A stretch of 64,000 bases of DNA. Origin: Poronia punctata (Eukaryota > Ascomycota > Sordariomycetes > Xylariales > Xylariaceae). The notes below the pieces were generated by a model, which worked only from the letters and a program-made list of their open reading frames with translations, was not told the origin of the DNA and made no database searches. Each line of letters opens with the position of its first letter. Positions within the stretch are counted from its first letter, which is position 1. This document shows, in pieces, positions 21,136 through 62,843 of this stretch. The stretch is taken from NCBI GenBank assembly GCA_022579005.1, contig MU401498.1:158642-222641 (forward strand), read 5' to 3'. A program made the position numbers and the translations under genes.

Positions 21136-21263
21136 TGTGGGGGAAGGTGCGGATATGGCTATAATAAGGTTCTTTCACAGTGAAGGGACTGTAACCAGAC
21201 CATAACCTCTATACTAGAGGACCCACCTCTGGTATACCACAATCAACCATTCTACCCCCAACA
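21136..21263 (+). repeat. 3' LTR of the mini element
   Basis: A 128-bp LTR. It contains an inverted repeat, TATACTAGAGG (21210-21220) and CCTCTGGTATA (21226-21236), that is absent from the 5' copy. A CCAT duplication follows at 21264. Confidence 0.82.
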
Positions 21264-21385
21264 CCATCGTTGGAGAAACGATCGTCCCCAAGTGGCGTTA
21301 TTTACATTTCATCTATCTTTTATATATTCATCTTGATAAAACTTCATTCATCTTCTGGAATGTTTCATCACGACAAGTCGACAGG

Positions 21386-23188
21386 ATGATGATGAATTCG
21401 GAAAAGGGTACACTATTACCCCAGCAACGGCAACGCGCTGTTGTTACCACTACTACTCCACCACCATCACGATGGAAATCCATCGGACTCCTGTTCCTCA
21501 AGGCGACCATACTCGCCTTGCTCGCAAAGACGATATGTTCAAACCTCACATCTCACAAAAGTCATCATGATGAAGAAGAAGCCGAGAAAAAAGGATGCAT
21601 CCAAGTAGACCCTCTTATCCCAAGCAGGCAAGACCTATCCGACATGGACTCATATCTCACATCTGACAAATTTCGTAATGAGACAATCAAGCACATGACA
21701 GGAGCCATACAGATCCCGACAGAGAATTACGACGATCTAGGCGCCGTGGGCGAGGACCCCAGATGGGAAATCATGTATCAATTCGCCGATTATCTACGAG
21801 AGACTTTCCCCCTCGTACACAGCAACTCCTCCTCCTCTTCCCTAAAAGTCGAGAAAATAAACACCCACGCTCTGTTATATACCTGGCAGGGAAGTGACAT
21901 GACCTTACAACCAACGGTATTAACAGCCCACCAGGACGTCGTCCCCGTAGCCCGGGAAACAATCTCCCAATGGACACACCCGCCCTACAGCGGACACTAC
22001 GACGGGACGTACATCTGGGGCCGCGGCGCCTCCGACTGCAAGAACAATCTGATCGGGATTCTCGAAGCCGTCGAGACGCTCCTGCAAACCGGAAGCTTCG
22101 AACCCCGCCGTACCATCATCCTATCTTTCGGCTTCGACGAAGAAACCCTAGGCGGTCGGGGCGCGGGCCATCTCGCGAAGACGCTTATAGATAGATACGG
22201 CGGCCAAGCCGCGGCCGTGCTAGTAGACGAGGGAAGCGGCATGGCGGAGACGTGGGGGTCGACCTTTGCTTTCCCCGGCGTTGCCGAAAAGGGTGCGTTG
22301 GACGTCGAGATCGTCGTGCGCATGGCCGGGGGCCATTCGTCGATCCCGCCGCCTCATAGCGGGATAGGTGTTGCCGCGGAGCTGATTACGAAGATCGAGG
22401 CGGAGCCCTACGAGCCGCATTTCCATGACGAGAATCCGTTTTTGCGAATCCTCGATTGCGGGAACGCGTATAGTCCTGATTTTCCGCAGGATTTGAAAAA
22501 ACACTTACCCTGGAAGAAACCCTCCTCCTCGTCTTGTTCAGCAGCAGGGAGAGACAAACTAGCCCTCGAGGCAGCCAAGCAAGGCGACGAGGTAAAGTAT
22601 CTATTCACGACATCACAGGCCGTGGATATAATCCACGGCGGTGTGAAGAGTAATGCTCTTCCCGAACGGACCCGCGTGGTGGTGAATAATCGCGTCAATG
22701 TCGGTGATAAGGTCCAGGATGTCAAGGATAAACTGACGCTTCTGGCGCGACAAGTCGGTGCGAAACACAATCTCACCGTACAGGCTTTCGTTGACGACGA
22801 CGACGACGACGACGAGCCCGGGATCCCGCAATCTATCAGATTAACCAGCAAACATGAGTTGGAATCGGCGCCCGTGACACCAACTGCGCTGGAGATGGAG
22901 GACGGGAGTACGTCTCCCTATGCGGTTCTGTCGGGCACCACGCGTGCCTTGTACGGCGAGTCCGTCATCATGGCGCCTGCGATGTCGACGGGGAATACGG
23001 ATACGCTGTTCTATTGGGACTTGACCCGCCATATTTTCCGTTTCTCGCCCGGTTATGATCCCGGACAGGGGCTGGGTTTGGAGGGGATACATACCGTGAA
23101 TGAGAGGGTTAATGTAGTTGCGCACATGAGGGCTGTTCAATGGTATTCCATGTTTATTCGGAATATGGACGAGGCAGACTTGCCTTAG
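21386..23188 (+). CDS. cps1: M20 metallopeptidase, carboxypeptidase S-like
   Basis: Probable vacuolar Gly-Xaa carboxypeptidase (Cps1-type, M20A), which releases C-terminal residues from small peptides. Single exon of 600 aa from a true ATG. Residues about 31-50 form one hydrophobic N-terminal anchor after a short basic cytosolic tail, as in yeast Cps1. The lumenal catalytic domain shows the metal and catalytic set: THQD-like TAHQDVVP (His182, Asp184), WGRGASDCKNN (Asp217), GFDEETLGG (Glu252/Glu253), VDEGSG (Asp near 282) and the late GIHTVNE His. GGHSSIPPPH is the dimerisation-domain motif. An Asp run (near residue 475) is encoded by GAC repeats and lies in a likely loop. It is close to family length and looks intact. 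The start follows the LTR element by about 120 bp, so the element lies within its promoter. Confidence 0.93.
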   Translation: MMMNSEKGTLLPQQRQRAVVTTTTPPPSRWKSIGLLFLKATILALLAKTICSNLTSHKSHHDEEEAEKKGCIQVDPLIPSRQDLSDMDSYLTSDKFRNETIKHMTGAIQIPTENYDDLGAVGEDPRWEIMYQFADYLRETFPLVHSNSSSSSLKVEKINTHALLYTWQGSDMTLQPTVLTAHQDVVPVARETISQWTHPPYSGHYDGTYIWGRGASDCKNNLIGILEAVETLLQTGSFEPRRTIILSFGFDEETLGGRGAGHLAKTLIDRYGGQAAAVLVDEGSGMAETWGSTFAFPGVAEKGALDVEIVVRMAGGHSSIPPPHSGIGVAAELITKIEAEPYEPHFHDENPFLRILDCGNAYSPDFPQDLKKHLPWKKPSSSSCSAAGRDKLALEAAKQGDEVKYLFTTSQAVDIIHGGVKSNALPERTRVVVNNRVNVGDKVQDVKDKLTLLARQVGAKHNLTVQAFVDDDDDDDEPGIPQSIRLTSKHELESAPVTPTALEMEDGSTSPYAVLSGTTRALYGESVIMAPAMSTGNTDTLFYWDLTRHIFRFSPGYDPGQGLGLEGIHTVNERVNVVAHMRAVQWYSMFIRNMDEADLP

Positions 23189-23603: not shown

Positions 23604-26600
23604 TTATTCTTCATCACTACTTTCTAGAACGAACCCGGCTCTGGCTCTGGGGCGTCGCCGTTGCGTTGGCTTCGGAACTGGTATATCCTCGTCGTCTGCG
23701 TCCCCCATGATTTCATCGACATCGCCGCTGACGGTGGGGCCCGGAGGACTCGGCTCCCTCGACACCCGTCTCCGTTTGGCGCTAGATGTCGAGCTAACGT
23801 GGGCATCCGATGAGAGGGGCGTGCTTGTGCCTTCCGCCCCCGAACTATCTCCGCTGTCGTCATCGTCCTCGTCTCTCCCAACGCCGCCTTTACCGATCAC
23901 TCTACTCGACCCCGAGGCTTGTGTAAAGTGTAGCAAGTCATCATCGTTGTCACTTTCATCTGAGTCGAGTCTTTCGGCCTTTCGCTTTTCGGATGCCTTG
24001 GACGGTTTATTCATATCCGAGAGTACCGGGACACTTTGGGCAACAACTTTCTGCTTCTGACGTATCCGCTCCTCGTTAGCGTAAAATTCGGCCCACCGTT
24101 CCTCGTCGCCTGACTCGTCGTCGCTCGCATGGACAAAGAGTTCACTTTTGAATCGTCGCGCCATTGCCTTTTCGCGTTCTCGCCGAGCCCGTTCCTTCTC
24201 TTCCAGTTGCTCCTCGGTCAGCGGCTCAGCATCGCTACGACGGCGCCGTCGTCTGGTCTTTTTGGGTCTGTCAAGGAAACCGTCGGCTGCCTTCCTCGCG
24301 GTTGGGCCGCCAGCCGGGAATAGGATATCATCGTCATCGTCAATACCGTCGTCGTCGTCGTCGTCGTCGAACACGGCCTTCTTCCGCGGTGCTGTTTTCC
24401 TCCTCAGTTGGTCTTGAGCTGATGCGCCATCTTCAAACGTAGGCGGGTCGAATTCAGCTCGGCTGATCAGGTCGAGCGTGTCTTGCAGGTTTTCAGATGA
24501 AAGCCGTGAGGGAATAATCCAGGATGATTCAGGGGTCTCGTCCAACGAAGGGGCGAGGCGCTCAAACCCGGCCAGTCTCATAAGCAGACGGAGGTGGGGA
24601 TTCTTGAACATGGCTTTGCGCCGAGCGTCGTCATCCGGCCGTACAGCTAGAAATAATTAGAATAATTAGCTTGGTCATATATCGTGGAGCACGGAACATC
24701 TACTAACAAACCGGTGGTGGTTCCTTTGTTGGCGCCGCCTCTTCGGCCGAAGACTCGGTGATCTCGGAGGGCTCGATGGACGCAATAGCTTGATCCGTCT
24801 TCTCCCACGCCGTCCTCTCGTCCATGGCATTCGATAGTTGGTCCTTGACCCATTTAATGTGATGTGCCAGGTTCTTGTCGAGTAACACTCCGACGGCGAT
24901 GGCGATCTGTTGGTCTCGCTCCACGATGTGACGGAACTCGAGCTCTGCTCCCGGCCTTGCCTGGGTAGTCGAGAGAGTCTGCTTCTCATGGCCAAACTCC
25001 AAGTAGTGAGCGGTGGCGTTGATCTTGGAGAAGAGCATCTCGATAATCAGCTGTGGTCTTTCCTCGATTTTGCGAATACACTTCCGCAGTATCTGCTTCA
25101 CCAACTCTTCCCATTCTTTAAACGTGCTGTTATGACTATCCAACGGTGCCTCGCCTTTGATCATGCTGTAGAACAACTGGACGATGTCGACCCGGAACAG
25201 CATCACGCTCATGTCTTGCTTGAATGCAACCCGGTAGAAATATCGGTGCGCCCGTTTCAGCTGGGACTCGTCGAGATCCTGGTAATACTTGGTGAAAGAG
25301 ACGAATGTATCGACAACCGTCTGGGGAATAAAGCGATTGGCAAACCGGCTGAAATCAAACTTGCGCTCTCGAGACGTTCGCTCTGCGTCTGCTTCGTCAT
25401 TTTCCGACTCGTCTGGCTCGTCTACTGGATTCTCCTCCTCCTCGCCCACGGCTTTGGCAGCCTTTTTCTTTTTCCGAACACGTCGGCGAGATCGAACCTG
25501 CATATCCACATTCTGCTTCGAGTAGGCTTCCAAGACACGAAGATATGTATGCGTCAACTCGGTGCAAGCGTCGAGATACTCAAACCCCTGCTCTTTGTAA
25601 TTTTTGGCGATATTGGCCACACGGTCGTGCGTCTCTTCTTCGTAAAAGATGCGACTCAACATGTTCTCGGCAATTTCCTGGTCCTCTTCGTTGCCGGATT
25701 CAAACATTTCTTGGACAGTCAACAGAATTTGGGTAAAGCATCTCATAGTTGAGCATAGCTCCTGCCAGCGCTTGTTGTCCATGGATTCGGCCATGGCCCG
25801 ATTCAAGGTGATGAACATTTCCTGGTTGAGTACGGCGGCGACTAGGTTAAAGTCTCCCACGTCGGCAGGGGTATGGGACTTTTTGTCTCTGGTCGCCTTT
25901 TTCCTAGCCCTCTCCGCTTCCAAGAACCATGTGACCAAGTAGAAGAACTGTCTCGAATGATATTCAAAGATGTAATCTTTCTGTTCGTCTAGCTTCTTGC
26001 GTATGTGGAGGAATAGAGGGTTGAAGCCCGAGTCGAGAAACTCCTCTACAAAGCCTTTGAGCTGTTCGCGAGCTCGAGCATTCAGTGTTACGGGTGGGCC
26101 GAGATCCTTCGGTTCCATCTCTGCCCTGGTGGGTCTTCGAGGGGGGCGGAAAACTTTGCTCTTGTCCATCTTCTGCTGCCTGGTTGCGGTATCCAGTAAC
26201 GCATCTTGACCAGTCACAGTAGACATTTTGCCATCACCGCGGTCCACCCAGATCATAGTGCCCCATCGGTTATGTCGAGAGGGAGCCTTGCGGTTATAAG
26301 GTCTATGCATAGCTGCTTCCTTGTTCATCATGGCCATGAGCTCGTTCCCTTTTGCTTTGCTCAACTGTTTTTCTTCCATGAATAACTTGGCTACATCTAC
26401 TCGTTTGACCAAGTGGAATATAATCTCCATCAGGATCACACCTTCCTGGTTAAAGTCCTCTCCCATGTTCGAAGCGATGGTAAGAATCGTGATGAGAATG
26501 TCTTGAAAGGAAAAGGCATCGATCAGGGCGGATCGGGAAATTTGTGATTCGTCGCCTTCGTATTCAACGCCGGGAGGTGGGGATATCATTGCCACGTTTC

Positions 26601-27233
26601 GCAGGAACAAGAGGACGAGTTTGATGATGCCCTCATCGCGGGCAGTTCGGTCTCCCCGGGAGAGGGCCATGGATGGCAAGGCAACCCGGACGGCGGTGTG
26701 CAAGATTTGGGCGGCATCGTAGTTGATTATGGCACGCTTGTAACCGAGCTGTGCCAGTTGGAGCACGGGGAGATGTCTGTGGTGGTTGGTAGTCATCTGT
26801 TCGATATCCCGTTCTAGTGGCCAGGTGAGAGGAACCAATATCTCGAAACAGGCTAGGGCAGCTCGAGCTTTGAATTTGTTGTCGGTGGCGTTGACGGGCC
26901 AGGCGGCGAGTATGTGTAGTAGGTCGCCCTCAACCAGGTTGGCTTCGGCTAGACACCGCGCAACGTCCATTCGGTTGGTTTTCTCGTCGTAGAAGCGAAT
27001 CCATTTCTTGATATCTCGTAGGACCTCGGTTGCCGAATCTCCAAGCACATATTTCCCGTCGTCATCGGCACTAAAACCACCCAACTGTACAAAGGTAAGC
27101 GCATTAGCAAGAGTCGTGCATGAAATCAAGAGATGTCGGGAATTTCCCAGAGACTTACCGCTGAAACGAGACTGTTAATGTGTGCCCGAACCTCCGGGTG
27201 GACAATGTCCACAGCCATGTCTGCTGCCTCCAT
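23604..27233 (-). CDS. tof1: Tof1/Swi1 (Timeless) fork-protection protein
   Basis: Subunit of the Tof1-Csm3 fork protection complex, which stabilises stalled replication forks and supports the replication checkpoint and cohesion in the nucleus. Three exons: 27233-27159, 27084-24708 and 24646-23604, giving 1164 aa, the usual size for filamentous fungi. Exon 1 encodes [20 protein letters not shown] and exon 2 continues [18 protein letters not shown], the conserved Timeless N-terminus. Exon 2 carries the helical repeats, a basic KKKKAAK segment near 610-620 and [13 protein letters not shown]. Exon 3 has [10 protein letters not shown] and [18 protein letters not shown], then a long acidic/Ser-rich disordered tail with basic patches. 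Intron 2 uses a GTTAGT donor at 24707; using the nearer GTTTGT would break the frame. It is transcribed divergently from the dehydrogenase gene, with 549 bp between the starts. Confidence 0.95.
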
Positions 27234-32046: not shown

Positions 32047-35000
32047 ATGAGTTCAGAAGAGTCAAATTCGATCCGGTCGTCCGGATCGGTCGATGGGGAT
32101 TCCACGACGCCAGAAACAACCCCTCCGTCGACGACTACGACGACGACAGCGACTACAACAACTGCGACGCCGCCCTCGGAAAAACCAACGACGGCAGATC
32201 AAGGGGCTATGTCGAAGAAACGAGCAGCGGCGGCAGAGCCCAATGGCTCGACTAAAGTAACTAAAAGACGAGCAGCCCGCGCCTGCGTTTCCTGCCGAGC
32301 TCGGAAAGTCAGATGCGATGTTGTCGAGAAAAACCCTTGTGGCAATTGCCGTTGGGACGGTGTTGAATGCGTCGTACAAGAAAGTCGTCGCCGCAGGTAC
32401 GTTTTTGGCACGTTCCTTCCCCATCCGCTACCTAGCTCCTAGCAAATCCTATTTTCAATTGCCCATGTAATTTTTTTATCCCTGTGCTTCCACCCCTCCT
32501 GTTTTGAGCGTCATACAATCTTCCCTTCACCCCTCACTCGTCCTTGTCTCGGATGAGGCTCATTATCGACTTGTCATTACCTACATGAATTTTTTTTTTT
32601 TTTTTCAAGATGCGAAATGCAAGTTGCCGATTCTGCATATTGCGTCACGCACAGAACTTCCCTTTTCGATCCAGTCTCCAAATTCTCCAATTCTTGCACA
32701 CCACCTGAGCCCGCTACACCCGCAGATGGGCAGGTGGGCAGCGTACCGTTAGCTCCTTCGTCCACTGCTCGTCTTAGCGCGGCCCGATTACTACAGAGGT
32801 TAGGACCGGGATTTACAGTACACTACTGACGCTCTTGGCCGCCCCGCCGTAATAGGAAAGGCCCTTTCGACCTCAACTCGTCGGGGCACGTAGGCAACAT
32901 GTGTGGTCCTCCACATGCCGAGGCACATTTGCGAGCGAAGAGCACGCCGAGTCCCATCGCCATTGCCCCCCTGCATCGTCCAGGCGACCTGTCTCGAGCG
33001 GCATCGATGAACCATGACGCCCATGGTTCAGGGGTAATAAATGGGCGCCGCACCGTCGACGGCCATCCGCAGCCGCATTTTCACTGTAAGTCTAGCAATC
33101 TCCCGTGTGGGGTTCGCAAACGAGCCTCATTCGAGCTTTTTCTGTCTTCACATGTCAGACTTCCCCCATCATCCATGTGTCGAATGCATCAGAGTGGGAG
33201 TACCTAGTTGAGAGGACCAAGGTTTTTTTTCTTCTCAAACTCGCAGGATTGCTCGTGGCATATGCTCATGCGTCCTACACAGGTCAACATTCCAATTTGG
33301 GACAGGATCCGGTATTGCTGCCCACTTTACAGCAGGCCGGCAACCAGGGATCGAGATACCCTAACATATGGCCACATCCAAATGGACGGAGTAATCCGAA
33401 CCTGAGCCCGCACGCTGGTCAAGGTGCCGGTGTTGGTGCGCTGCCCACAGCTCAATTCGTCAAACCAGTGGATGAAACCGATATCTCGGCTCAACAGCCT
33501 GGTTTCCTTCGACCGCTGCCGTCGAGGTTTGCACCCGAGGATATAGCCTATCTTCGTGCCAAAGGCGCATTGTCGGTTCCCAATTTCCAAGTCCAGAGCG
33601 CGCTATTACGCGCCTATGTGGAATATGTACATCCGTACATGCCCCTATTGGACTTGCACGAATTCCTGAGCATCGTCGATGCCCGCGATGGATCTCGGGG
33701 ACAGACAAGCCTGTTCTTGTACCAGGCCGTTATGTTCTGTGCCACCGCATTCGTGAGCAATAAGGTGTTGAAGGAAGCTGGATACACCTCTAGGAAGGCG
33801 GCGCGGAGAGCTTTTTTCACTAAAGCCAGGGTAAGGACAAGCATCATCTCTTTAGCTCACAGGTTTCCTACTTACACGTTAGCAGCTTTTGTACGATTTC
33901 GATTATGAAAACGACCGCCTGTTACTCGTTCAGGGGCTCCTCCTCATGACATATTGGTATGAAACACCAGATGACCAAAAGGATACATGGCACTGGATGG
34001 GCGTCGCCATTTCGCTAGGCCACACCATTGGCTTGCACCGGAATCCGGCCAACACCAACATGTCCCCCTCGAGACAGAAGCTGTGGAAGCGGATATGGTG
34101 GTCATGCTTCATGCGAGACCGTTTAATCGCGCTGGGCATGCGAAGACCCACGCGCATAAAGGACGAAGATTTCGACGTGCCAATGTTGGAAGAGGGAGAC
34201 TTTGACTTTGCCGTACTACCCGAGCACATTCAGGTCGTCGATCCCCAGTGCACCCTCTTACGCGACGTGTCCATGCAACGAGACCTGGCACAGATGTGCG
34301 TCGCGAAAGCGAAGCTCAGCCTCTGCATCAGTCATATGCTGAAGGCCCAATACTCGGTCTTGATCTGCACCAAGACCCACGAAAACACGACAAACAGCAC
34401 CATGATGCTGCTGCCGAACAAGCAGCTCGACAACATGGAGAGCATCGCTCGTTGCGACCTAGAGCTCAGTAGATGGGCCGAGTCGTTGCCCGAGTCGTGC
34501 CAATACCGGCCCTTGTCGCCCCTCGATGTCCAGAATGGCCGGGGCGTCATCGCCGTGCAGCGCAATCTACTGCATATGGTCTACTTCACCACCGTATCAG
34601 CCTTGCATCGCCCGCTCTTCCTCCCCTCGTCGCCCAACGAGCTCCAGCACGCACCGACTCAGCTTCAGCAAACATCACGGGTCCGCGTCTGCACTGCTGC
34701 TATCCAGATCACTCGGATGGTGGCCGAGCTATACACGATGCGGCTTGATAGGTTCCTGCCGACTACGGGCGTGACGGTCATCTTGCCGGCTCTCATCATC
34801 CACATGATTGAGATGAAAAACCCATCCTTGGTCGTCCGCTCTGCTGCTCACAAGGGCTTCCAGCAGTGCATGCGAGTCATGGAGCGTCTACGCGACATAT
34901 ACGCTGCTGCCGATTACGCCGTAGCATTCGTCAACGCCGCGATGCGTAAGGGAGCCCAGGTCTCACCAGTACAGCAGCCGCCAGCGTTCGACATGCCAGG

Positions 35001-35667
35001 CAACCACGGGCCCCTGAATATGGACGACTTCAAAGCCTCCATGATGGCGTCTTATATCACGCCGAACCTTGCCAGCATGCGAACCGTGACGACACCGCCA
35101 CCGGAACCCGTATTGTTCCCCACGACTGTGGAGGAGAAGCCGATCCTGTTGTCCGACCCTACCCTGAGCTCGGACATGATGAAGCCGTACACCACGAGCT
35201 CGGATATGCCGTCAACGTTTCCTACCGCGAGTATGACGACGAATTTGACGACGAACATGACGATTGACACATCGGTCCTGGCCTCGGACACTGCGATGGG
35301 CGCCCATTCACCACCGACGACAGATGTTATGACTCCCGAGTCGAGCGGATCGTCCAACGAGTCATCATGGACAGCGAATCGACTTTCTTTCAGCTCTAGT
35401 ACCATGGACCTGGACCTGGACCTGGATGGTCTTGCCGACAACCAGGCCGACGAGTTCGACTGGAGCTCCCACTCGCTAAGCGCGCCCAACATTGACTTTG
35501 ACCAATGGCTTCAGTTCCCACCTGGCGAGGGTGCCGCGGTAGGACCTGGTATGGGCCTTAACGTTGGCGATAATGGACTTGTCGCCTTGAGCCAGATTGA
35601 GGGGCCAAACTCTACCTTTAGCATCGGCCCTTCAGATGTTGCTGCCGAGAGCGTCGTGGCAGCCTAA
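32047..35667 (+). CDS. Zn2Cys6 transcription factor, FarA/FarB-CTF1 family
   Basis: Nuclear regulator of the family controlling fatty-acid utilisation and cutinase genes; which paralogue it is cannot be decided here. Exons 32047-32396, 32610-32798, 32856-33085, 33283-33830 and 33886-35667 give 1032 aa. The zinc cluster is C80-x2-C83-x6-C90-x7-C98-x2-C101-x6-C108, within RRAARACVSCRARKVRC and followed by VVQESRRRR, the CTF1/FarA hallmark. From about residue 310, LPSRFAPEDIAYLRAKGAL leads into the fungal-specific regulatory domain (YVEYVHPYMPLLDLHEFL, LLYDFDYE, MTYWYETPDDQKDTWHWMG, WKRIWWSCFMRDRLIALGMRR in adjacent segments). The C-terminal 250 residues are Ser/Thr/Asp-rich with a repeated LDLDLDLD acidic stretch, probably activating. 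Exons 2 and 3 are the least certain: a TGA at 32827 in their frame is removed by a proposed 57-nt intron with TACTGAC as branch point. Confidence 0.88.
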
Positions 35668-39110: not shown

Positions 39111-42100
39111 CTAATTTCTAGTTACTTTGTCCCCGGCAGCTTTTTCAACCGTGGTTGGCACTACTACTGCATCGGGTTCCCTATTAGCCCCAGCCGCTTC
39201 CCCTTCAATGTGTGGCCGTTTCGACTCTGGCTGGCTTTCCCGAGCCGACGGGGGCCGTTTCTTGTCTCGATCCTGGTTGTTTTCTTTGCTGACCCGGCGC
39301 GCATCCCTTTGTTGTTTCTCTTGCTTCTCCTTCTCGCGACGATGTGCCTTGGACTCGAACTCGTGCCAGTCACCCTTGATATGCTTCAGCCTGGAATTTA
39401 TTTGGTCAGTACGACGGCCCTTCCTAAATCATTCCAATAGGGGTCGGTCACTACTCACTCGACTGCTTGGCGAGGCGGGGGCTGTTCTACAGTAAAGTAA
39501 GCATGTTCAAGGACGTCTGCGGCCGACGGTCGTTTTACCGGGTCGTACTGGAACATCTGCGATAGGAGTTCATAGGCTGCGGCCGGTACACGCTCTTTAT
39601 ACTTCTCAGCAAACACATTCGGTTTCCGATAACTGGGCCTCAACAATTCGAACCAGGGCGTGTCAACGAGCCCAGGCCATTCCTTTCTATTAGGAGTACC
39701 GAGAATGTTGTAAATCTTGTCCAGTTGGCTGATCTCGCCACCATCGCCCGGAAATATGGCGTGACGTGTGAATATTTCCACCATGACACAAGCCGCACTC
39801 CATATGTCCACTGCTGCGCCATACCGTGTCTCGCCCAGCAAGAGCTCCGGGGATCTGTACCATATAGTAATGACCCGATTCGTGTAATCTAGCTGATGTC
39901 GTTTGGCGTAAAACCGAGCCAAGCCAAAGTCGGCCAGCTTGAGAATGCCCTCGTTGCTGACCAGAATATTAGCCGCTTTTATATCACGGTGCAACACCCC
40001 GCGTTTGTGCAAGTAGTCCAACCCTTCGAAGAGCTGCTTGCTCAGATGCTTCTTTTGGGCCGCGTCGAGTTTGTACGACGGGTGGTTGAGCAGACCCGTC
40101 AGATCATGCGAGAGGTACTCGAATACCATGTAGCATTCGTTCTTCTCAATCATGACTTCGTGCAAGTCCACAATGTTCTCATGTCTCAGCGATGACAGGA
40201 GCTTGATTTCGCGGAGCGCCGTGACGGGGAACCCATCCCTCTCCCCTTCCATACGAATCCGCTTCAACGCCACAAGTTTCTTCGTGTAGACATGTTGGGC
40301 CTTGAATACCTTACCGTATGTACCTGATCCGATGACGGATTCGTTGCCCGGTTTTCGAAAATAGACTGACGTGGACCGGGCAAGCTCGGGTTCTAATACT
40401 GGCTTCGGCTTCAATTTTCTTCGGACCTTGATCACTTTGCGTGTCCTCGGTTGCTCAGGTGGTGGTGCCAGCGGTGGTGGTGGTGGCGGCGGCGGCAGCG
40501 GCGGCCTTCCATGATGGTAATCCCCCCGAGCTCGTGCAGAAGCAGGTTCCCTGGGAGTGTCTTTGGGCAAGTCCCGCTGCCGATCATCAATTGTACGCGG
40601 TGGTTCCTTCTTGGGCGCCGCGCTAAACTTCTGCGATATTTCCGGCTTCGGAGCCGCGACTGGATTCTTGTTGGACGTCTTAAATGCAAAACTGAATTTC
40701 GAACTCGCAGGTCCGGTTGGCGCAGATGCCGGTGGACCAGGTGGTGACTTCTGAGCGGCCGAGGCGGTTTCATCTCTTCGTGTATCTAGACGATCGTCCC
40801 GTTGCTGGGATTCCGTTTCGCCCCGCCTATCTGCGTCTCGGATAACAGGTGTGCCAGAGCGAATTGGGATCACATCCCGCCCAGGAGGGCTCGAAGGATC
40901 CTTATTGGAATCCCTCGAGTCGACCCACTGACTAGACCTCGGAGGTCTTGAAGAATAGTTATCAAGCCCTTCGCGGTCTGACGTCTTTTCACCTCGAAAA
41001 CTAGCCCGAGAAAACCCACGGCTCCCAGACCCGCCTTGGGCCATGGGGCCAGTAGGAGCTCTGGGCGAAGTTGGAATAGACGGCTGATGTGCCGCCGGAC
41101 CCGTGGGAATGCGTACGCCTCGATCTCTAGGGTGTGGACTACGCAAAGTTAGACAAAATCGCCTTCCTGGAACCTATATGTGACCATACCTTGTAGGAGA
41201 ATACCGAGGGTGGCCAGCTACATCAGTGCGGGCCGCTGCGCTATGTCGAGGTGAACCTATCGAGCCTTGGTGAGGCGAGCTGTAGCTGGCTTGTGAGGGC
41301 AACCGTCCGGCCGGAAGATCATCTTCCGGATTCATGCCCATGTCCCTTGGCCGGTCGGGCGGGTCAGGCGGGTCGAAACTGTTCAGCCTGTCCGTTCTTC
41401 TGAACGCGTTTACTTCGATGCTGTTGGCCCCAGAAGCAAGGAGCCCTCGTGGATGAAATCGCTCTTCTCGGATCTTGGCCTTCTTACGAGAACGGCGGGA
41501 ACTGCGGTCCCTCGGCGACCGTGGAGGATATTCATGCCGCGGCGGCTGGTCGTAAGGGGACGTTCGAGAGTGCGTGCCCTTTTCCGAAGGACCTCGTGGG
41601 GGTGCCCTACCGACGGAGCGAGAGGGAGAATGGGCGTGCGAGAAAGATGAACGGCGGGAGCTCGGTCGGGGAGAGCGGCTTTGATCTCGCATCTTGGCAT
41701 CGATGCGCGGGCGGGTTGGGGGGGTTCCATAACGATCGTCAAGCATATCTTCTAATGGAGACCGGCTTCGTCGACGAGGGCCATCCATGGGTTCTTCGCG
41801 CCCACCATGGCGACGGTGAGGTCCATCGTACCGCGGAGAGATGGAACGTCTACGTGACGGTGAGTGTGGACGGCTAGTTCTTGATGACCCGTGACCTTTC
41901 TGCCGGCTTCGTTCTTCTCTTTCAGCGCGGCGTCGACGTTCTCGTTCGCGGTCGCGGTCGCGGTCGCGGTCACGTTTCGATCGCTTGGACCTAGAGGAAG
42001 GAAATGGTAATGGGCTTCGGCTTCTAGGACGCTTCCTAGAGCCGGGCGAAAACGAGCGGTCTCGAGTGCGTTCGGAATGATGACCGGCTTTAGAGTGATG

Positions 42101-54106: not shown

Positions 54107-54893
54107 CTATTTCCTCTCCACCGTCGTAGGTTCCCACATGGTGATCTTTGATTTGACACTATTATTTAGTCAGCAAGCGATTGCTATTGTAGTCCGACCC
54201 CCAGACAGTCGCAAGATGACTCACGTGCTATACGGCTTATATGCTCCGCGTGAAAGTGTATAGTTGGGAATACTCTTTGGTTCGGCGTCCTCCCAGACAC
54301 GCTTCTTATATTGCAACAGAGGATCTTGAGTAGGTGGCTTATCGACGAGGTATGATATCCATGCGTGCCAGCCGGGTTCGATCTGTGCCCTATCCAGGGG
54401 TTAGTGGCTGAGTGGCTAATAAGGTGGTTAACTTCAACACCTACGCGTCGAAGTCTTTGTTCTTGTAGTCGACCCATCTTGTTCGAACTGATGCAAGTCA
54501 GCGGGATGTCCAGTGAGCTATTCGAAGCCGTCGTAATCACGTACGTGGGAGTTCTTCGGTGTTCTCAAAGTATTTGTTTCCGTATCTGTCTGTGCCGATG
54601 AGGGCACCCGCCTTCGTATCGCCTGACGTCCATCAGTATTGCCGCCCGCCGCATATATCAGACCGAGTTACCGCATACCGATGTACTATTCCAATCGCAT
54701 CATGGGTTAGCTGGCGTCCATGGGCACTTCGGTCGCGGAGTCAACGTACGTTCATTTGTTTCCAGGCATCCTGTATTGAGTTGTTTAAGTTAGCCATGCC
54801 ACGAACACTGTTTGCCTTTCTAGGAGTTGGAAGTCAACTAACCCGAACTCCAACCTTCCACAGGTTTCGCAGGGTTCTGCTGAGGGTAGACAT
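54107..54893 (-). CDS. NDUFA12: NADH dehydrogenase complex I subunit NDUFA12 (B17.2), seven exons
   Basis: Accessory subunit of mitochondrial complex I at the base of the matrix arm. The 138-aa product is split into seven exons: 54893-54843, 54770-54750, 54685-54679, 54622-54545, 54487-54445, 54389-54225 and 54158-54107. Splicing yields MSTLSRTLRNLWKVGVR, DAWKQMN, YIGDTKAGALIGTDRYG, NKYFENTEELPLRTRWVDY, KNKDFDAAQIEPGWHAWISY and LVDKPPTQDP, all matching the family, then VKSKITMWEP near the end. Exon 2 is 21 nt and exon 3 only 7 nt (TACATCG, coding YI and the first base of Gly). All six introns are 55-72 nt with GT...AG ends. Length agrees with the family (about 140 aa). The gene is invisible to plain frame inspection because most exons are tiny. 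It is divergent from pgs1. Confidence 0.92.
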
Positions 54894-55307: not shown

Positions 55308-57088
55308 ATGATTCTACGGGGTGCGACGAGATGTTGTCGGAGCGTGCGACCAACGATACCACGTCAACTAACACAAAATGTGCAGTACGCCCAACCTTGC
55401 CGTAGACGCTATTCAATACCAACCGGCGCAACGCCCAGCAGTCCTCCGAGCTCGACCGGAATGTTAGCCCCTTTTACAAACGAGCTGGACCGCCTAGCAC
55501 CGTCCTTCAGGATTAATGGGTCTCAAATCCAAATTATTAGATCTCCAGCCGATTTCTACGAGACGCTCAAAGTACGTACTCACTCGGGTGAAGCAAAATA
55601 CAGTAGACTGACTCCGATGTAATCAGTCCAAGATACGCCATGCGAAGAAGCAAATCTTCTTATCCACGTTATATATCGGCAAATCCGAGAAAGAGCTGGC
55701 AAGCCTCCCATCGACTCGGACTGTTGTAAGCTGAGGTTAACGGAAGTAAAAAGATCACGACGATACAAGAGGCGCTACGCAATAATGCCGAGCTGAAGCT
55801 CAGCATACTGACAGATGCTCTCCGCGGGACACGCGAAGCTCCGGACCCCTCGTGCGCATCGCTACTCGCCCCCCTTATCACCGAGTTTGGACCTGATCGG
55901 GTGGAGATCCGTATGTACCACACCCCGAATCTGACTGGCCTACGCAAGAAACATATACCGAAGCGCATCAACGAGGGATGGGGCTTGCAGCATATGAAGC
56001 TGTACGGGATAGACGACGAAATCATCATGTCTGGGTACATACTCAACCTTTTCATCCTCCTTCTCGCAGGAGCGCTAGCTAATGTTCCATGATCTAGCGC
56101 TAATTTGTCCAACGATTACTTTACGAACCGTCAGGACCGATATCACCTCTTTACCTCGAAAGATGTTACGCAGTACTTCTGGAATCTCTATAAAGGAGTT
56201 GCTTCGCTGAGTTTCGTGGTGGAGCCAACCCAAGAAGCTGCTGGATTCCGTCTCCACTGGCCATCGACGAACCCAGCCCCCTCTCCTCTCGAGCAACCGA
56301 CGCAATGCATATCGAAAGCAACTGAAATCATCAGTAAACTGATTTCTATAAACCGTGCCCAGGATAGCCCGCAAAAGATTGAGGGCGATGAGAAATCGTC
56401 GCCAAAAGACACGACTGTCTATATGCTCGGTCAACTCTCCCAGCTCATGCGACCGAATACGTCGACAGAACTACCGGTTGTTACCCACATCTTGAAAACA
56501 CTAGCAAAGCCTGAATATTCTAGCTCATCCTGGACATTCACCGCTGGCTATTTCAACCCCGACCCGTCACTCAGGAATCTTCTCCTTTCCACAGCATCTC
56601 ATGGTAATACAATTATCACAGCCCACCCCCATGCAAATGGGTTTTACGGATCAAAAGGAGTCTCGGGCCTATTACCTGGCGCATACACGTACCTAGCTAG
56701 ACGATTTCTGAGAGAAATACATCAACGGAAGCGTGATGATGCGATCGTGTTGAAGGAATGGCGAAGAGGGATGGTGAGCGAACCCGAAGGTTGGACTTAT
56801 CACGCGAAAGGGTTGTGGGTAACCCTGCCAAACGAAGAAGAACCGTCGATGAGCATAATTGGAAGCTCAAATTATACGAAGCGGAGCTACACGCATGATC
56901 TCGAAGCAGGTGCTTTAGTCGTAACGGAAAACGAAGACCTCAAGAAAAGGCTTGGGGCTGAACAGAGATGGCTCCAGGATTTCGCAAAACCTGTATCTCT
57001 GGACGATTTCGCTACGAACGAGAGAAGAGTGGGGCTGAACGTTCGCATCGCTATGTGGATTGTGAGCCTTGTCGGGGGCGCGCTTTAA
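55308..57088 (+). CDS. pgs1: Phosphatidylglycerophosphate synthase Pgs1
   Basis: CDP-diacylglycerol-glycerol-3-phosphate 3-phosphatidyltransferase, the committed step to phosphatidylglycerol and cardiolipin in mitochondria (phospholipase D superfamily). Exons 55308-55571, 55627-55698, 55754-56034 and 56098-57088 give 535 aa. The N-terminus MILRGATRCCRSVRPTIPRQ is Arg-rich and acid-free, a mitochondrial presequence. HKD motif 1 is HMKLYGIDDEIIMSGANLSN (about 192-211, completed by splicing). HKD motif 2 is HAKGLWVTLP with SIIGSSNYTKRS (from about 441), the variant second motif expected for Pgs1. Intron 2 (55699-55753) is best read as GC-AG, joining KSEKEL to ITTIQEALRNN; no GT donor of plausible length preserves the frame. 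Intron 3 restores SGANLSNDYF. The start at 55308 is the first ATG in frame. Confidence 0.94.
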
Positions 57089-57652
57089 CGGAAGAATTAG
57101 AGCAAGTGGAAGATCCAATCCCCTTTGGGCTGCGAAGTGGTTACTGAGGCTCCGAGGGATTGCATAGTCTCTGTCAAAGCGGTATATCCGGAGACCCCAC
57201 CGGACGGAGTCTCCAGCGCGGCTGCCAAACAAACGCCGACTGCGTCCCCACCCCATCCTGTATTTGTGAGCGGACTTGGTCGCTCCGTGTACAACGCCCC
57301 ACCAAAGATACCCCTTGATAGAATGTAGACTATTAACTCAAATCAGAAGCATCCGTATCTAGGCAAATTTCCAGGTACCCGCGCCGGGTCCCTGTGGCCC
57401 CTTGTCCCTGATCTACTTGAATATTGGAGCCCATTGGTCCTAGACCGCTTAAATCGGGAGAACCCATCGTGTTGCATTCATTCCTCCACGTGGTTATCCA
57501 GATCGATTTCGGATGAGACCATCCTCTCGCCACAAAGATGTCTTGGTGAAGTCTGGACATGTTATAAATAATGGGGTGACCGACTGTGACATTGTGCCTT
57601 TATCCTCGACCTTCAACGTAGCATCCATATCGTGCTCAAGATCCAAAGAAAA
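57089..57652. other. Upstream region of the endoglucanase gene
   Basis: A 564-bp region with no supported gene. A TATAAATA element lies at 57563-57570, 83 bp before the endoglucanase ATG, and is a plausible core promoter. A 75-codon minus-strand frame (57333-57560) overlaps this promoter and was not accepted. Confidence 0.6.
57563..57570 (+). promoter_or_regulatory. TATA box of the endoglucanase gene
   Basis: TATAAATA, 83 bp upstream of the ATG, is a likely core promoter of a regulated secreted-enzyme gene. Confidence 0.55.
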
Positions 57653-58888
57653 ATGAGGGCCACATTATCGCTACTGGCGTCACTTGTCACCGGCGCCTCG
57701 GCAACCATCTACTATGCCGGCGTAGCCGAATCCGGGGGTGAATTCGGCGCCTACGGCGATCCAGGAACCGGCATCCCGGGCACATTCGGCAAAGACTACC
57801 AATTCATCGACGAGGCCGGCGTGGACACGTACGTGGACGAGAACCACGTCAACCTCTTCCGCATCGCCTTCCTTCTCGAGCGCATGTGTCCGCCCGAGAC
57901 GGGTCTGGGCGCGACCTTTGACGAGGAGCACTACGGCCACTTCAAAGACGCAGTCGACTACGTGACCGTGACAAAAGGCGCGTACGCGATCCTAGACCCG
58001 CACAACTACATGCGGTACAACGACCCCAGCCAGCAGCCGTACAGCGGCAGCGTGATCGGCAACGCGTCGGACGACGAGGCGGCCACTACGGAGCAATTCG
58101 GCGAGTTCTGGGGCGAGCTGGCGTCGCGGTTCAAGGATAACGAACAGGTCATCTTCGGCCTGATGAACGAGCCGCATGACATGACGACCGAGCTCGTGCT
58201 CAAGAATAACCAGGCTGCCATCGACGCGATCCGCGAAGCCGGCGCCGAGAACCTGATCATCATGCCGGGAAATAGCTGGACGGGAGGCCACGCTTGGACG
58301 GAAGGGGATGATCCGAGTAGTGCGCTGCTGAACCAGTTCAACGACCCGGCGAACAATACGGCGATTGATATCCATGAGTATCTCGACGAGGACTTTAGTG
58401 GTGGTCATGCGGAATGCGTTAGTGATCCGGCTACGTATCTGAAGGATATGACGGAGTGGTTGAAGGTAAGTCCTAAATACAAAGTCACGAACGAAAAATC
58501 AAAGCCGTACAAGCCGAACTAACAAACTTTTTTAAAAAAAAAACCACAGACAAACCACCTCAAAGCCTTCATCACCGAGTTCGGCGGAGCCAATAATACC
58601 GGCTGCGCCGACATGCTCGAGGACATGCTGAACTACATGTCCGATAACGAGGAATACATCGGTTGGACGGCCTGGGCGGCCGGTCCTTTCTGGGGTCCAA
58701 ACAGTCCCTGCTGCACGGACTCGGTGCAGCTGGGTAGTCTGGAGCCCGGCAGTACCGCTGCTGACGGATCGCCTGGTCTGTATGATACCGTTTGGCTTCC
58801 TGTCTTCCAGCCGCTCATCCCCGAGAAGCTGCAGTGGAGTGGAAAGGCTAGTGTTGATGGTGGTGAGCTGAGCGCTTTTCCGGCTTAG
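57653..58888 (+). CDS. Secreted endo-beta-1,4-glucanase, GH5
   Basis: Extracellular cellulase of glycoside hydrolase family 5 (subfamily 5-type, like Trichoderma EG II core) that cleaves internal beta-1,4-glucosidic bonds. Exons 57653-58465 and 58550-58888 give 383 aa. The signal peptide MRATLSLLASLVTGASA is cleaved before TIYYAGVAESGGEFG. Catalytic-site motifs are FRIAFLLERM, LDPHNYMRY, GLMNEPHD with acid/base Glu173, DIHEYLDEDFSG and, just after the intron, FITEFGG with nucleophile Glu281. GWTAWAAGPFWG is the late Trp motif. There is no cellulose-binding module or linker, so this is a core-only enzyme. A frame-preserving 84-nt intron with GTAAGT and CACAG joins WLK to TNHLKAF. Cysteines near 79, 245 and CCTD suggest disulfides. 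Confidence 0.95.
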
Positions 58889-60601: not shown

Positions 60602-61796
60602 ACGGGTTGATGACGATGTAATTGTAATTGGATGACTACTTAGGTAGCGTGGGCGGTGGAACTTGGGACGAGGGAGTGTCTGTCTCCCCCCCCCCTCCCC
60701 CCCCGAAGTTCTGACCTGGATCGTGTTGGGTATGGGTCATTGTCCGACGGAGGGAGGCTATGAAGGATTTTTGGTTGGGGAACAAAAGAACAAGAGCCAG
60801 GGAAGCCTTCATAAAAGGTGCCATGTTATTTGCTCGCACATTGATTTGGGTAGTAGCTACGGAATTTTGCTTCTACTTTGGAGATTTTATCAATCCTGCT
60901 TTGTTATGTACTAACCCATCAGCAGCAGAGAATCATGTGTTTGTAACTTGGGAGAACCTACTTTTAGACCGGCAAGAATCTTGGTGCATTGTCTGCGCAG
61001 TAAAATCCGCCATGTCACCGGTTATCTCGAACTTATGGACCATAGTTTCTGGGAATAGGTTAAGCGTTGGCAAATCATTAGTCTATGGATGAGAATGTAA
61101 TGTATTCTCATAGACCCTTTTGGCCCAGATACGAGTCGTGGTACGGGACCTTGAGCAAATGGTGACAGGACAGGAGACATGTTATGGTGGTGGTGCGATC
61201 AGCTCACTGTACATGTTCCCGAACCCAACCGGAGAAAGAAGCTACTGTAACTTTCCCGGGGAATAAGTACATGTTGAACCCTTGAAGCGTTACCCTCTCA
61301 ATCAAACGATGGCTATCTTTTAGACGTACTTTCTCTCAGGAGGACGTCCACGACGAGGGTCATGCAAGATGCAACAGTTTCTACCCCACATTGCTAAGTG
61401 GTTCCAGGACGGCAGCGCAACCGTAGCGTGAGATTGATTATAGCCAACGCTTCAAGTTCCACTCTTGACCATCTTCTTCTTACGGCGCAAAGTTAAAGCC
61501 GAGGAATCTTTAAATGAATCATCATAAAGAGCCGCTACCGACATCGATTAGTAATGCCGGCGGGGTAACTATTCTGGTCGTTGGGGACGTGTTACGTCAC
61601 AGACTACAGTTGGACTACCTACTCCAAGTCCCGAACAGCATATAAGACACAGCATATAAGAAACAGCATATTAGATACCCTTATTTTTAGATTTGGAAGC
61701 TGTTTATTTATTTGTTTTATTTTTACTAATTTCTTCGACAATTTGGACTACCGTTAGATTACTGAGTGATAGTTGGCAAAAAAAAAGAAGAAAAAA
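60602..61796. other. Intergenic, 1.2 kb
   Basis: A 110-codon plus-strand frame (60760-61092) with a hydrophobic middle exists, but it has no recognised motif and follows immediately after a C-rich tract; I did not accept it. The final 150 bp include short repeats of ACAGCATATAAGA near 61634-61670 and the A-rich leader of the next gene. Confidence 0.55.
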
Positions 61797-62843
61797 ATGA
61801 AGGCCTTCGTTTCAATCGAGAATGGGCAAGGCGCCGTAAGAGAAGTTGAGAAGCCAACGCCCTCCGAGGGTGAAATACTAGTCCGCGTCCATTACGTCGG
61901 CCAGAACCCGACAGACTGGAAGGGATTACCGCACAAGCCCCCCGGACGCATCATAGGCTGCGACTTTGCCGGAACAGTAGCGGATGCGAACGGGTCCAAG
62001 TGGCGGGAAGGCCAGCGCGTCGCCGGCTTCGTGCAAGGCGGCCAGGCAGAGCCGCTGTCCAGGGGCGCATTCGCCGAGTATCTCGTCACCGCCGCGTCGT
62101 TTGTATGGGCGGTACCTGACTCGGTCTCGCTCCAGTCCGCGGCCACCGTCAGCCTTGCCTTTGCTACTGCGATGCAGGCCATGTTTCAACGTCTGGGACT
62201 CCCCGAACCTAGCAAGCCTGCCACGTCGGCCTTTCCGGTCCTGATCAATGGCGGGACCAGTTCCGTCGGTCTCTACGCCGTGCAGTTGGCCAAGCTTGCC
62301 GGATTATTCGTCATCGCTACGGGGTCGAGGCAGAACCATGATCTGCTTACGTCTGTTGGCGCGGATGCGACGGTGGATTATAAAGATCCGGATTGGCCCG
62401 GGAAAGTCCGGGCTCTGTCTCACGATAACTTGCGACACGCGTTTGACTGCGTATCTGAGCCGGATACCGTCAAGAGCGTCGCGAAGGCCCTCTCGCCTAC
62501 TAAAGGAGGCCATATCCTCGTCATTCTTCCGCGCACGCAAGACGATGTTCCGGCAGGGCTGTCAAAGGTCAAGGTGGAATCTACAGTCGTGCACACCGTC
62601 TTCGGCCATCCGATCGATGCTTCCGGGACCGGGTTCCAGAATTGGGGCGGTCGTACCCCGGAAGATCAGAAGTTGTGGGAGAAGTATCTGAGTCTGCTGC
62701 CCGAGTACACCGAGTCGGGCAAGATCAAGCCTAATTCTTATAAGGAGCTGGGAGGGCTTGATGCTATACCGGAGGGATTTGAGCTGCATAAACAAAATAA
62801 AGTCCGGGCTCAGAAGATTGTGTATAAAGTATTGTCCGATTAA
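61797..62843 (+). CDS. MDR-family enoyl reductase / quinone oxidoreductase
   Basis: NADPH-dependent medium-chain reductase of the zinc-independent type, similar to fungal stand-alone trans-enoyl reductases and quinone reductases. Single exon, 348 aa, from the ATG after an A-run. The GroES-like N-domain shows VGQNPTDWKGL and GCDFAGTV. The nucleotide site is FPVLINGGTSSVGLYAVQLAKLAG in adjacent segments (the TSSVG turn replacing the classical GxGxxG), about residues 144-167. VDYKDPDW is typical after the second strand. Structural-zinc cysteines are absent, as expected for this subgroup. No polyketide synthase or other cluster gene is adjacent, so an isolated detoxification or general reductase role is as likely as a biosynthetic one. 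Length is normal. Confidence 0.9.
   Translation: MKAFVSIENGQGAVREVEKPTPSEGEILVRVHYVGQNPTDWKGLPHKPPGRIIGCDFAGTVADANGSKWREGQRVAGFVQGGQAEPLSRGAFAEYLVTAASFVWAVPDSVSLQSAATVSLAFATAMQAMFQRLGLPEPSKPATSAFPVLINGGTSSVGLYAVQLAKLAGLFVIATGSRQNHDLLTSVGADATVDYKDPDWPGKVRALSHDNLRHAFDCVSEPDTVKSVAKALSPTKGGHILVILPRTQDDVPAGLSKVKVESTVVHTVFGHPIDASGTGFQNWGGRTPEDQKLWEKYLSLLPEYTESGKIKPNSYKELGGLDAIPEGFELHKQNKVRAQKIVYKVLSD

What the first reader, a model, noticed from the sequence alone, without database searches (positions are those of the whole stretch)
54679..54685. 7-nt micro-exon in the complex I subunit gene NDUFA12
Seen directly: exon 2 codes DAWKQMN and ends in phase 0, while the next large exon starts in phase 1 with GCGATACGAAG (coding DTKAG). 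The only way found to link them is TACATCG flanked by AATAG and GTATGC, which supplies YI and the first G of Gly. Family knowledge: NDUFA12 proteins carry YIGDTKAG exactly here. The 138-codon gene thus has seven exons, including one of 21 nt and one of 7 nt. Seven-nt exons are very rare and would be missed by gene predictors.
Basis: partly seen in the sequence, partly recalled or inferred. Interest (0 to 1): 0.8.

Follow-up and report, generated by a model that had tools for sequence, protein, structure and literature searches.

The report
Conserved seven-base exon in NDUFA12
A fungal gene for a part of respiratory complex I contains what is almost certainly a coding exon only seven bases long, and deposited protein models of a number of related fungi go wrong at exactly this spot, which suggests that the tiny exon is old, widespread and easily missed.

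Summary
The finding holds. NDUFA12 lies on the minus strand (54893-54107): seven exons of 51, 21, 7, 78, 43, 165 and 52 nt, 138 aa. Exon 3 (54685-54679, TACATCG) supplies Tyr, Ile and the first base of Gly in YIGDTKAG. Both flanking introns (64 and 56 nt) are GT-AG with a CTRAY branch-like site. Enumeration of GT-AG paths gives one in-frame path with this exon and one without (exon 2 longer by 4 nt, weak donor GTTGAC, NVRDTKAG). A YIG micro-exon arises in 4 of 200,000 shuffles. Best homologue: Xylaria, 87% identical. New here: of 218 listed homologues, 191 read YIG-like at the right spacing, 26 are garbled at this junction, one is undecided. Two show exactly the 4-nt path; others read into a donor, over the exon 4 acceptor, or join exon 2 to exon 4 in a shifted frame. 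They include Sordariomycetes, Leotiomycetes, Eurotiomycetes and Dothideomycetes. Five of six same-species or sister pairs compared are identical after the junction yet disagree at it. Best reading: a constitutive micro-exon, probably ancestral to these classes and often mis-annotated. No RNA reads and no relative's genomic DNA could be consulted, so splicing and conservation are inferred.

The parts
54843..54893 (-). NDUFA12 exon 1 (51 nt, MSTLSRTLRNLWKVGVR), ends phase 0, donor GTTAGT
54750..54770 (-). NDUFA12 exon 2 (21 nt, DAWKQMN), ends phase 0, donor GTACGT
54686..54749 (-). intron 2 (64 nt), GTACGT...GAATAG, branch-like gCTAAC 21 nt before its end
54679..54685 (-). NDUFA12 exon 3, the 7-nt micro-exon TACATCG (Tyr, Ile, first base of Gly)
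54623..54678 (-). intron 3 (56 nt), GTATGC...CGTCAG, branch-like aCTGAT 10 nt before its end
54545..54622 (-). NDUFA12 exon 4 (78 nt), starts in phase 1 (GC of Gly, then DTKAG...)
54445..54487 (-). NDUFA12 exon 5 (43 nt)
54225..54389 (-). NDUFA12 exon 6 (165 nt)
54107..54158 (-). NDUFA12 exon 7 (52 nt including TAG stop)

Best explanation
TACATCG is a real, constitutively spliced 7-nt internal coding exon of NDUFA12. Its two short flanking introns are each recognised by intron definition and removed in two steps, restoring the YIGDTKAG motif. The same arrangement (exon 2 ending in phase 0, 7 nt of coding sequence, exon 4 starting in phase 1) exists in other Pezizomycotina, where gene predictors sometimes miss it. 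Shown: sequence, frame, splice signals, homology, clustering of model errors. Inferred: splicing in vivo, constitutive inclusion, order of intron removal, ancestral state.
For: Frame and boundaries. Both introns have GT, AG and CTRAY, 21 and 10 nt from the end; the gene's other four introns have theirs at 10 to 19 nt. Retaining intron 2 or 3 gives a stop within three codons. Chance 4 of 200,000. Of 218 homologues, 193 have the right spacing and 191 of these YIG-like residues. Model errors cluster here: of 21 sequences with an internal insertion of 3 aa or more against the query, 19 have it between residues 7 and 27, 2 elsewhere. Hypoxylon sp. EC38 (NVRDTKAG) and Xylogone (QVCDTKAG) show the same 4-nt alternative as computed for the window. 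A. niger, A. clavatus and Blastomyces models look like exon 2 in another frame joined straight to exon 4: a DNA coding both readings exists in each case, against 0 of 20,000 random peptides for each of the three reference peptides tried.
Against: No RNA reads and no genomic DNA of relatives could be examined. The conservation argument rests on errors in deposited protein models and on codon logic. The donor GTATGC of intron 3 is weaker than GTACGT on a profile from only four donors (2.32 against 7.08; the alternative GTTGAC scores 0.0). The two odd models P0131 and P0147 do not fit the acceptor rule, and three odd models replace exon 2 as well.
Confidence: 0.94

Rival explanations
1. No micro-exon: one 123-nt intron from a donor 4 nt inside intron 2 (GTTGAC) to the exon 4 acceptor, giving NVRDTKAG.
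For: In frame, GT-AG. The deposited Hypoxylon sp. EC38 protein has exactly this reading and Xylogone the same shift.
Against: Weak donor (0.0 against 7.08 for GTACGT). The Gly before DT, nearly invariant in the 41-row alignment, is lost. YIG-like residues are in 191 of 218 homologues, among them two Hypoxylon models, P0008 and P0011, that match EC38 at 101 and 98 of 111 positions after the junction. The solved-structure homologue 7zm7_h reads YIGDTK.
Confidence: 0.03
2. The gene is a pseudogene or the assembly is wrong here, and YIG is a coincidence.
For: None found beyond the unusual structure.
Against: 138 codons intact, 87% identical to Xylaria sp. FL1042 over the full length, six GT-AG introns. 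The family search of the genome gave three matches: two are exons of this gene, the third lies on another contig and looks by eye like the assembly-factor paralogue. Chance 4 of 200,000.
Confidence: 0.01
3. The micro-exon is real but was gained in this lineage only; model errors in other classes have other causes, such as the small exon 2 or single introns at different places.
For: No relative's DNA was seen. Three of 25 odd models replace exon 2 as well (P0131, P0143, P0173), and P0197 is an exon 1/2 error. Paracoccidioides models fit an intron after YI-G but do not show one before it.
Against: Both boundaries are attested elsewhere: Val right after exon 2, as GT requires, in P0012, P0044, P0123, P0147, P0170 and P0189; and before Gly a residue with an NYA codon, as YAG|GC requires, in 19 of 21 odd models ending in G before DT, against a background share of 0.43.
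Confidence: 0.1

Closest known systems
One-nucleotide micro-exon of CYP621A in Fusarium (PMC12940212; abstract and passages seen)
   Same: Fungal internal micro-exon inside a conserved motif, found because neighbouring exon phases do not fit; the alternative single intron is unusually long.
   Different: 1 nt, a P450 gene, Fusarium species, confirmed there by SRA reads; here 7 nt, a complex I gene, apparently in four classes, no reads seen.
Conserved plant micro-exons of 15 nt or less (PMC8831610; start of abstract in a listing, and passages)
   Same: Tiny coding exons conserved over long times and widely mis-annotated.
   Different: Plants, RNA-seq based. In its main text the terms fungi, yeast, NADH and 7-nt occur 0 times.
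Micro-exons (from 6 bp) of Phanerochaete chrysosporium P450 genes (PMC1184071; passages) and exons down to 2 nt in Phlebia radiata gene models (PMC6540522; passages)
   Same: Very small fungal exons between short introns.
   Different: Basidiomycetes; conservation over classes is not claimed in the passages seen.
Xlr2 micro-exon of Trichoderma virens (PMC11121469; start of abstract in a listing, and passages)
   Same: Filamentous ascomycete micro-exon.
   Different: Its inclusion depends on glucose; the NDUFA12 exon is inferred to be constitutive.

Membership tests
NDUFA12 (complex I accessory subunit B17.2 / N7BM) | Pfam PF05071 match over the cut-off, full-length homologues | tested here: met
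   E 8.2e-33, 113.6 bits against cut-off 23; 87% identity over 138 aa to Xylaria sp. FL1042; complex I chain 7zm7_h 1.3e-49
Internal coding micro-exon (15 nt or less) | Flanked by AG and GT, both introns of usual length with branch-like site | tested here: met
Internal coding micro-exon (15 nt or less) | Needed for frame and for conserved residues | tested here: met
   skipping shifts the frame; YIG-like residues in 191 of 218 homologues
Internal coding micro-exon (15 nt or less) | Spliced transcript observed | not testable with these tools
   no RNA reads of this fungus available
Evolutionarily conserved micro-exon | Same exon boundaries in genomes of relatives | tested here: inconclusive
   indirect only: model errors place the boundaries in species of four classes; the one DNA scan made, of viral contigs, gave no relative
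Regulated micro-exon switch (as Xlr2) | Condition-dependent inclusion | not testable with these tools
   no transcript data

The most novel reading that the evidence does not exclude
The 7-nt exon has been kept since the common ancestor of the main Pezizomycotina classes because its splicing is a control point for complex I: skipping shifts the frame, while skipping together with use of the GT at position +5 of the GTNNGT donor restores it (7 and 4 are equal modulo 3) and makes a second isoform without YIG (NVRDTKAG).
Probability: 0.06. Interest if true: 0.85.

Novelty: new member of a known kind. Interest (0 to 1): 0.56.

Why it matters
If right, a housekeeping gene of filamentous ascomycetes carries a very small and, it seems, very old micro-exon. 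Part of the deposited NDUFA12 proteins (26 of the 218 looked at) are then wrong at a conserved motif. The gene would make a clean test case for micro-exon-aware annotation, for how an acceptor and a donor 7 nt apart are used under intron definition, and for why such an exon is not lost over very long times.

Tried and rejected
Single-intron alternative (NVRDTKAG): rejected as main product because of its weak donor and the conserved YIG. Genomic DNA of relatives: one scan of viral contigs with the family alignment; 3 stretches matched a pattern, none encodes a relative. Metagenome contigs were capped at 0. The prokaryote genome collection was not scanned. The paralogue on contig 29 (L001) was read by eye only: it looks like the assembly factor NDUFAF2 and said nothing on the micro-exon. 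A gap count by column mixed natural loops (residues 47-50 and 101-107) with model errors, so insertions of 3 aa or more were counted instead. P0217 (HNTG) was left out of the error count as undecided. The sample is not random: each search listed 120 of 581, 540 and 532 matches, and the second and third queries were odd models chosen on purpose; in the first list alone 5 of 120 are odd by spacing. Some models used as correct partners are shortened elsewhere (P0191, P0126) or carry extra residues at the start (P0128).

Full report
WHAT IS THERE. The minus strand of 54893-54107 codes a complete NDUFA12 protein of 138 aa in seven exons of 51, 21, 7, 78, 43, 165 and 52 nt (the last including the stop), separated by introns of 72, 64, 56, 57, 55 and 66 nt, all six GT-AG. 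The spliced product matches Pfam NDUFA12 at E 8.2e-33. It is 87% identical over its whole length to a protein of Xylaria sp. FL1042, the best of 581 matches, so the window is from a Xylariaceae-like fungus (inference). Of the five PDB alignments shown, 7zm7_h reads YIGDTK at this place and 6gcs_h SIGDTK; the other three chains (9iho_q and two more) have the same spacing but other residues, so the motif is not family-wide. The PF05071 search of the window's genome gave three matches: two are exons of this gene, the third is on another contig and looks by eye like the assembly-factor paralogue (the name NDUFAF2 is recalled).

THE MICRO-EXON. Exon 2 (DAWKQMN) ends in phase 0 and exon 4 starts in phase 1. 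TACATCG at 54685-54679, between AATAG and GTATGC, supplies Tyr, Ile and the first base of Gly. Both flanking introns have a CTRAY site 21 and 10 nt before their ends (intron 3 has a second one 35 nt before its end); the other four introns of the gene have theirs at 10-19 nt. Retaining intron 2 reads V-R-stop, retaining intron 3 reads M-R-stop after the Gly. Skipping exon 3 shifts the frame, which happens to stay open to the end of the coding exons.

ALTERNATIVES IN THE SAME DNA. Enumeration of GT-AG paths from exon 2 to exon 4 (introns of 30 nt or more, one or two introns) that keep the frame without stops gives one two-intron path (the micro-exon) and one single-intron path, in which exon 2 is longer by 4 nt (donor GTTGAC) and the product reads NVRDTKAG. 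On a profile from only four donors of this gene, GTACGT scores 7.08, GTATGC 2.32 and GTTGAC 0.0.

CHANCE. Keeping the outer hexamers and shuffling the middle of the 127-nt stretch with dinucleotides preserved, a YIG micro-exon with AG and GT at least 40 nt from both ends arises in 4 of 200,000 shuffles; with a wider range of residues, in 66 of 200,000. The strict 11-mer occurs once in the window, at 54687-54677.

RELATIVES. Three protein searches listed 120 each of 581, 540 and 532 matches, 218 distinct proteins in all. The second and third queries were odd models chosen on purpose, so the sample leans towards errors; in the first list alone 5 of 120 are odd by spacing. Of 218, 193 have the canonical spacing to Gly-Asp-Thr and 25 do not. 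In the 193 the two residues before Gly are YI 110, YM 23, NI 22, HI 18, YQ 6, YL 5, TI 2, HQ 2 and one each of HL, HS, FI, VP and NT. VP is Zymoseptoria tritici IPO323 (P0175), which disagrees with P0185 of the same species (YQ), so I count 26 odd models; NT (P0217) is undecided; 191 remain. Internal insertions of 3 aa or more relative to the query occur in 21 proteins: 19 have them between residues 7 and 27, two elsewhere (P0160 at 64, P0159 at 125). One of the 19 (P0197) is an exon 1/2 error.

HOW THE MODELS FAIL TELLS WHERE THE EXONS ARE (inference from protein letters; no DNA of these species was seen). (a) Hypoxylon sp. EC38 reads LNVRDTKAG and Xylogone MQVCDTKAG: the 4-nt lengthening computed for the window, because in a GTNNGT donor the second GT lies 4 nt on, and 4 and 7 are equal modulo 3. 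(b) Reading into a donor after exon 2: Q-V-R (P0147, P0170), Q-V-C (P0189), Q-V-G (P0123). (c) Exon 4 begun too far upstream: 21 of the 25 odd models end in Gly before Asp-Thr, and in 19 of these 21 the residue before Gly has a codon ending in YA, as a YAG acceptor in front of a phase-1 GC requires; the share of such residues in the canonical proteins is 0.43; the exceptions are P0131 and P0147. Part of the 21 reach this by route (d). (d) Exon 2 in another frame joined to exon 4: WPPNAG (A. niger P0209), WTPDAG (A. clavatus P0210), RSPDAG (Blastomyces P0215). For each, a DNA exists that codes the exon 2 peptide (taken from related models) in one frame and the odd peptide in the other; of 20,000 random peptides for each of three reference peptides, 0 allow this. 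(e) Exon 3 running into its own donor: QYIGMVSEC (Aspergillus tanneri P0138), and Paracoccidioides P0192 and P0198; the P0198 reading fits CAG-TATATTG-GT. It does not show an intron before TATATTG there.

PAIRS. Identity after the junction and residues at it: Z. tritici P0175/P0185, 109 of 109, VPG against YQG; A. niger P0209/P0128, 109 of 109; Drepanopeziza brunnea P0206/P0110, 110 of 110; Rhynchosporium (two species) P0122/P0126, 94 of 94; Bipolaris (two species) P0173/P0103, 110 of 110; Trichophyton (two species) P0047/P0191, 95 of 99. Each pair disagrees at the junction. That is what annotation errors look like, not protein evolution.

SPREAD. Odd models include Sordariomycetes (Hypoxylon), Leotiomycetes (Xylogone), Dothideomycetes (Zymoseptoria) and Eurotiomycetes (Aspergillus); the classes of the other genera are recalled. 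The simplest reading is that the 7-nt exon is older than the split of these classes. This is inference: no relative's DNA was seen, and lineages without errors may have lost the introns or have been annotated with RNA data.

MECHANISM. Fungal introns this short are recognised across the intron (recalled). With only 7 nt between acceptor and donor, two splicing complexes can hardly sit there together, so removal in two steps is likely (inference). I expect constitutive inclusion, because the failure products examined (two retentions, one skip, one 4-nt shift) all damage a conserved motif.

KNOWN OR NEW. Ten paper searches showed no report of this exon in their listings; 'microexon' with 'NDUFA12' gave 0 papers (the hyphenated spelling was not tried), and the 11 papers with NDUFA12, exon and fungi were not opened. 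Tiny exons are known in fungi: one nucleotide in Fusarium CYP621A, from 6 bp in Phanerochaete P450 genes, down to 2 nt in Phlebia gene models, and the regulated Xlr2 exon in Trichoderma. Very short exons are named as a weak point of long-read annotation in Ganoderma (PMC11590231, one passage). Conserved, mis-annotated micro-exons are known in plants. So this is a new member of a known kind, notable for its apparent age and for the housekeeping gene it sits in.

Noticed in passing
window 54679-54770, minus strand: Skipping the micro-exon gives a shifted frame that stays open through the rest of the coding exons, so skipped transcripts would not meet an early stop there.
   Followed up: partly
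L001 (own genome, contig 29): A second PF05071 gene, by eye the assembly factor NDUFAF2, with a different intron position and no sign of the micro-exon.
   Followed up: partly
window 56093-57088, plus strand: Neighbouring ORF with a PLD-like domain just under the Pfam cut-off (24.9 against 27), perhaps a phosphatidylglycerophosphate synthase (the name is a guess).
   Followed up: no
window 24706-27174 minus; 21218-23188 plus; 57590-58522 plus; 61773-62843 plus; 39458-41173 minus; 33883-35667 plus: Other ORFs with Pfam domains: Timeless, M20 peptidase, GH5 family, zinc alcohol dehydrogenase, protein kinase, fungal transcription factor domain.
   Followed up: no
window 54750-54770 and homologues: The 21-nt exon 2 is also a source of model errors: P0131, P0143 and P0173 replace it, and P0197 keeps extra residues at the exon 1/2 junction.
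   Followed up: partly
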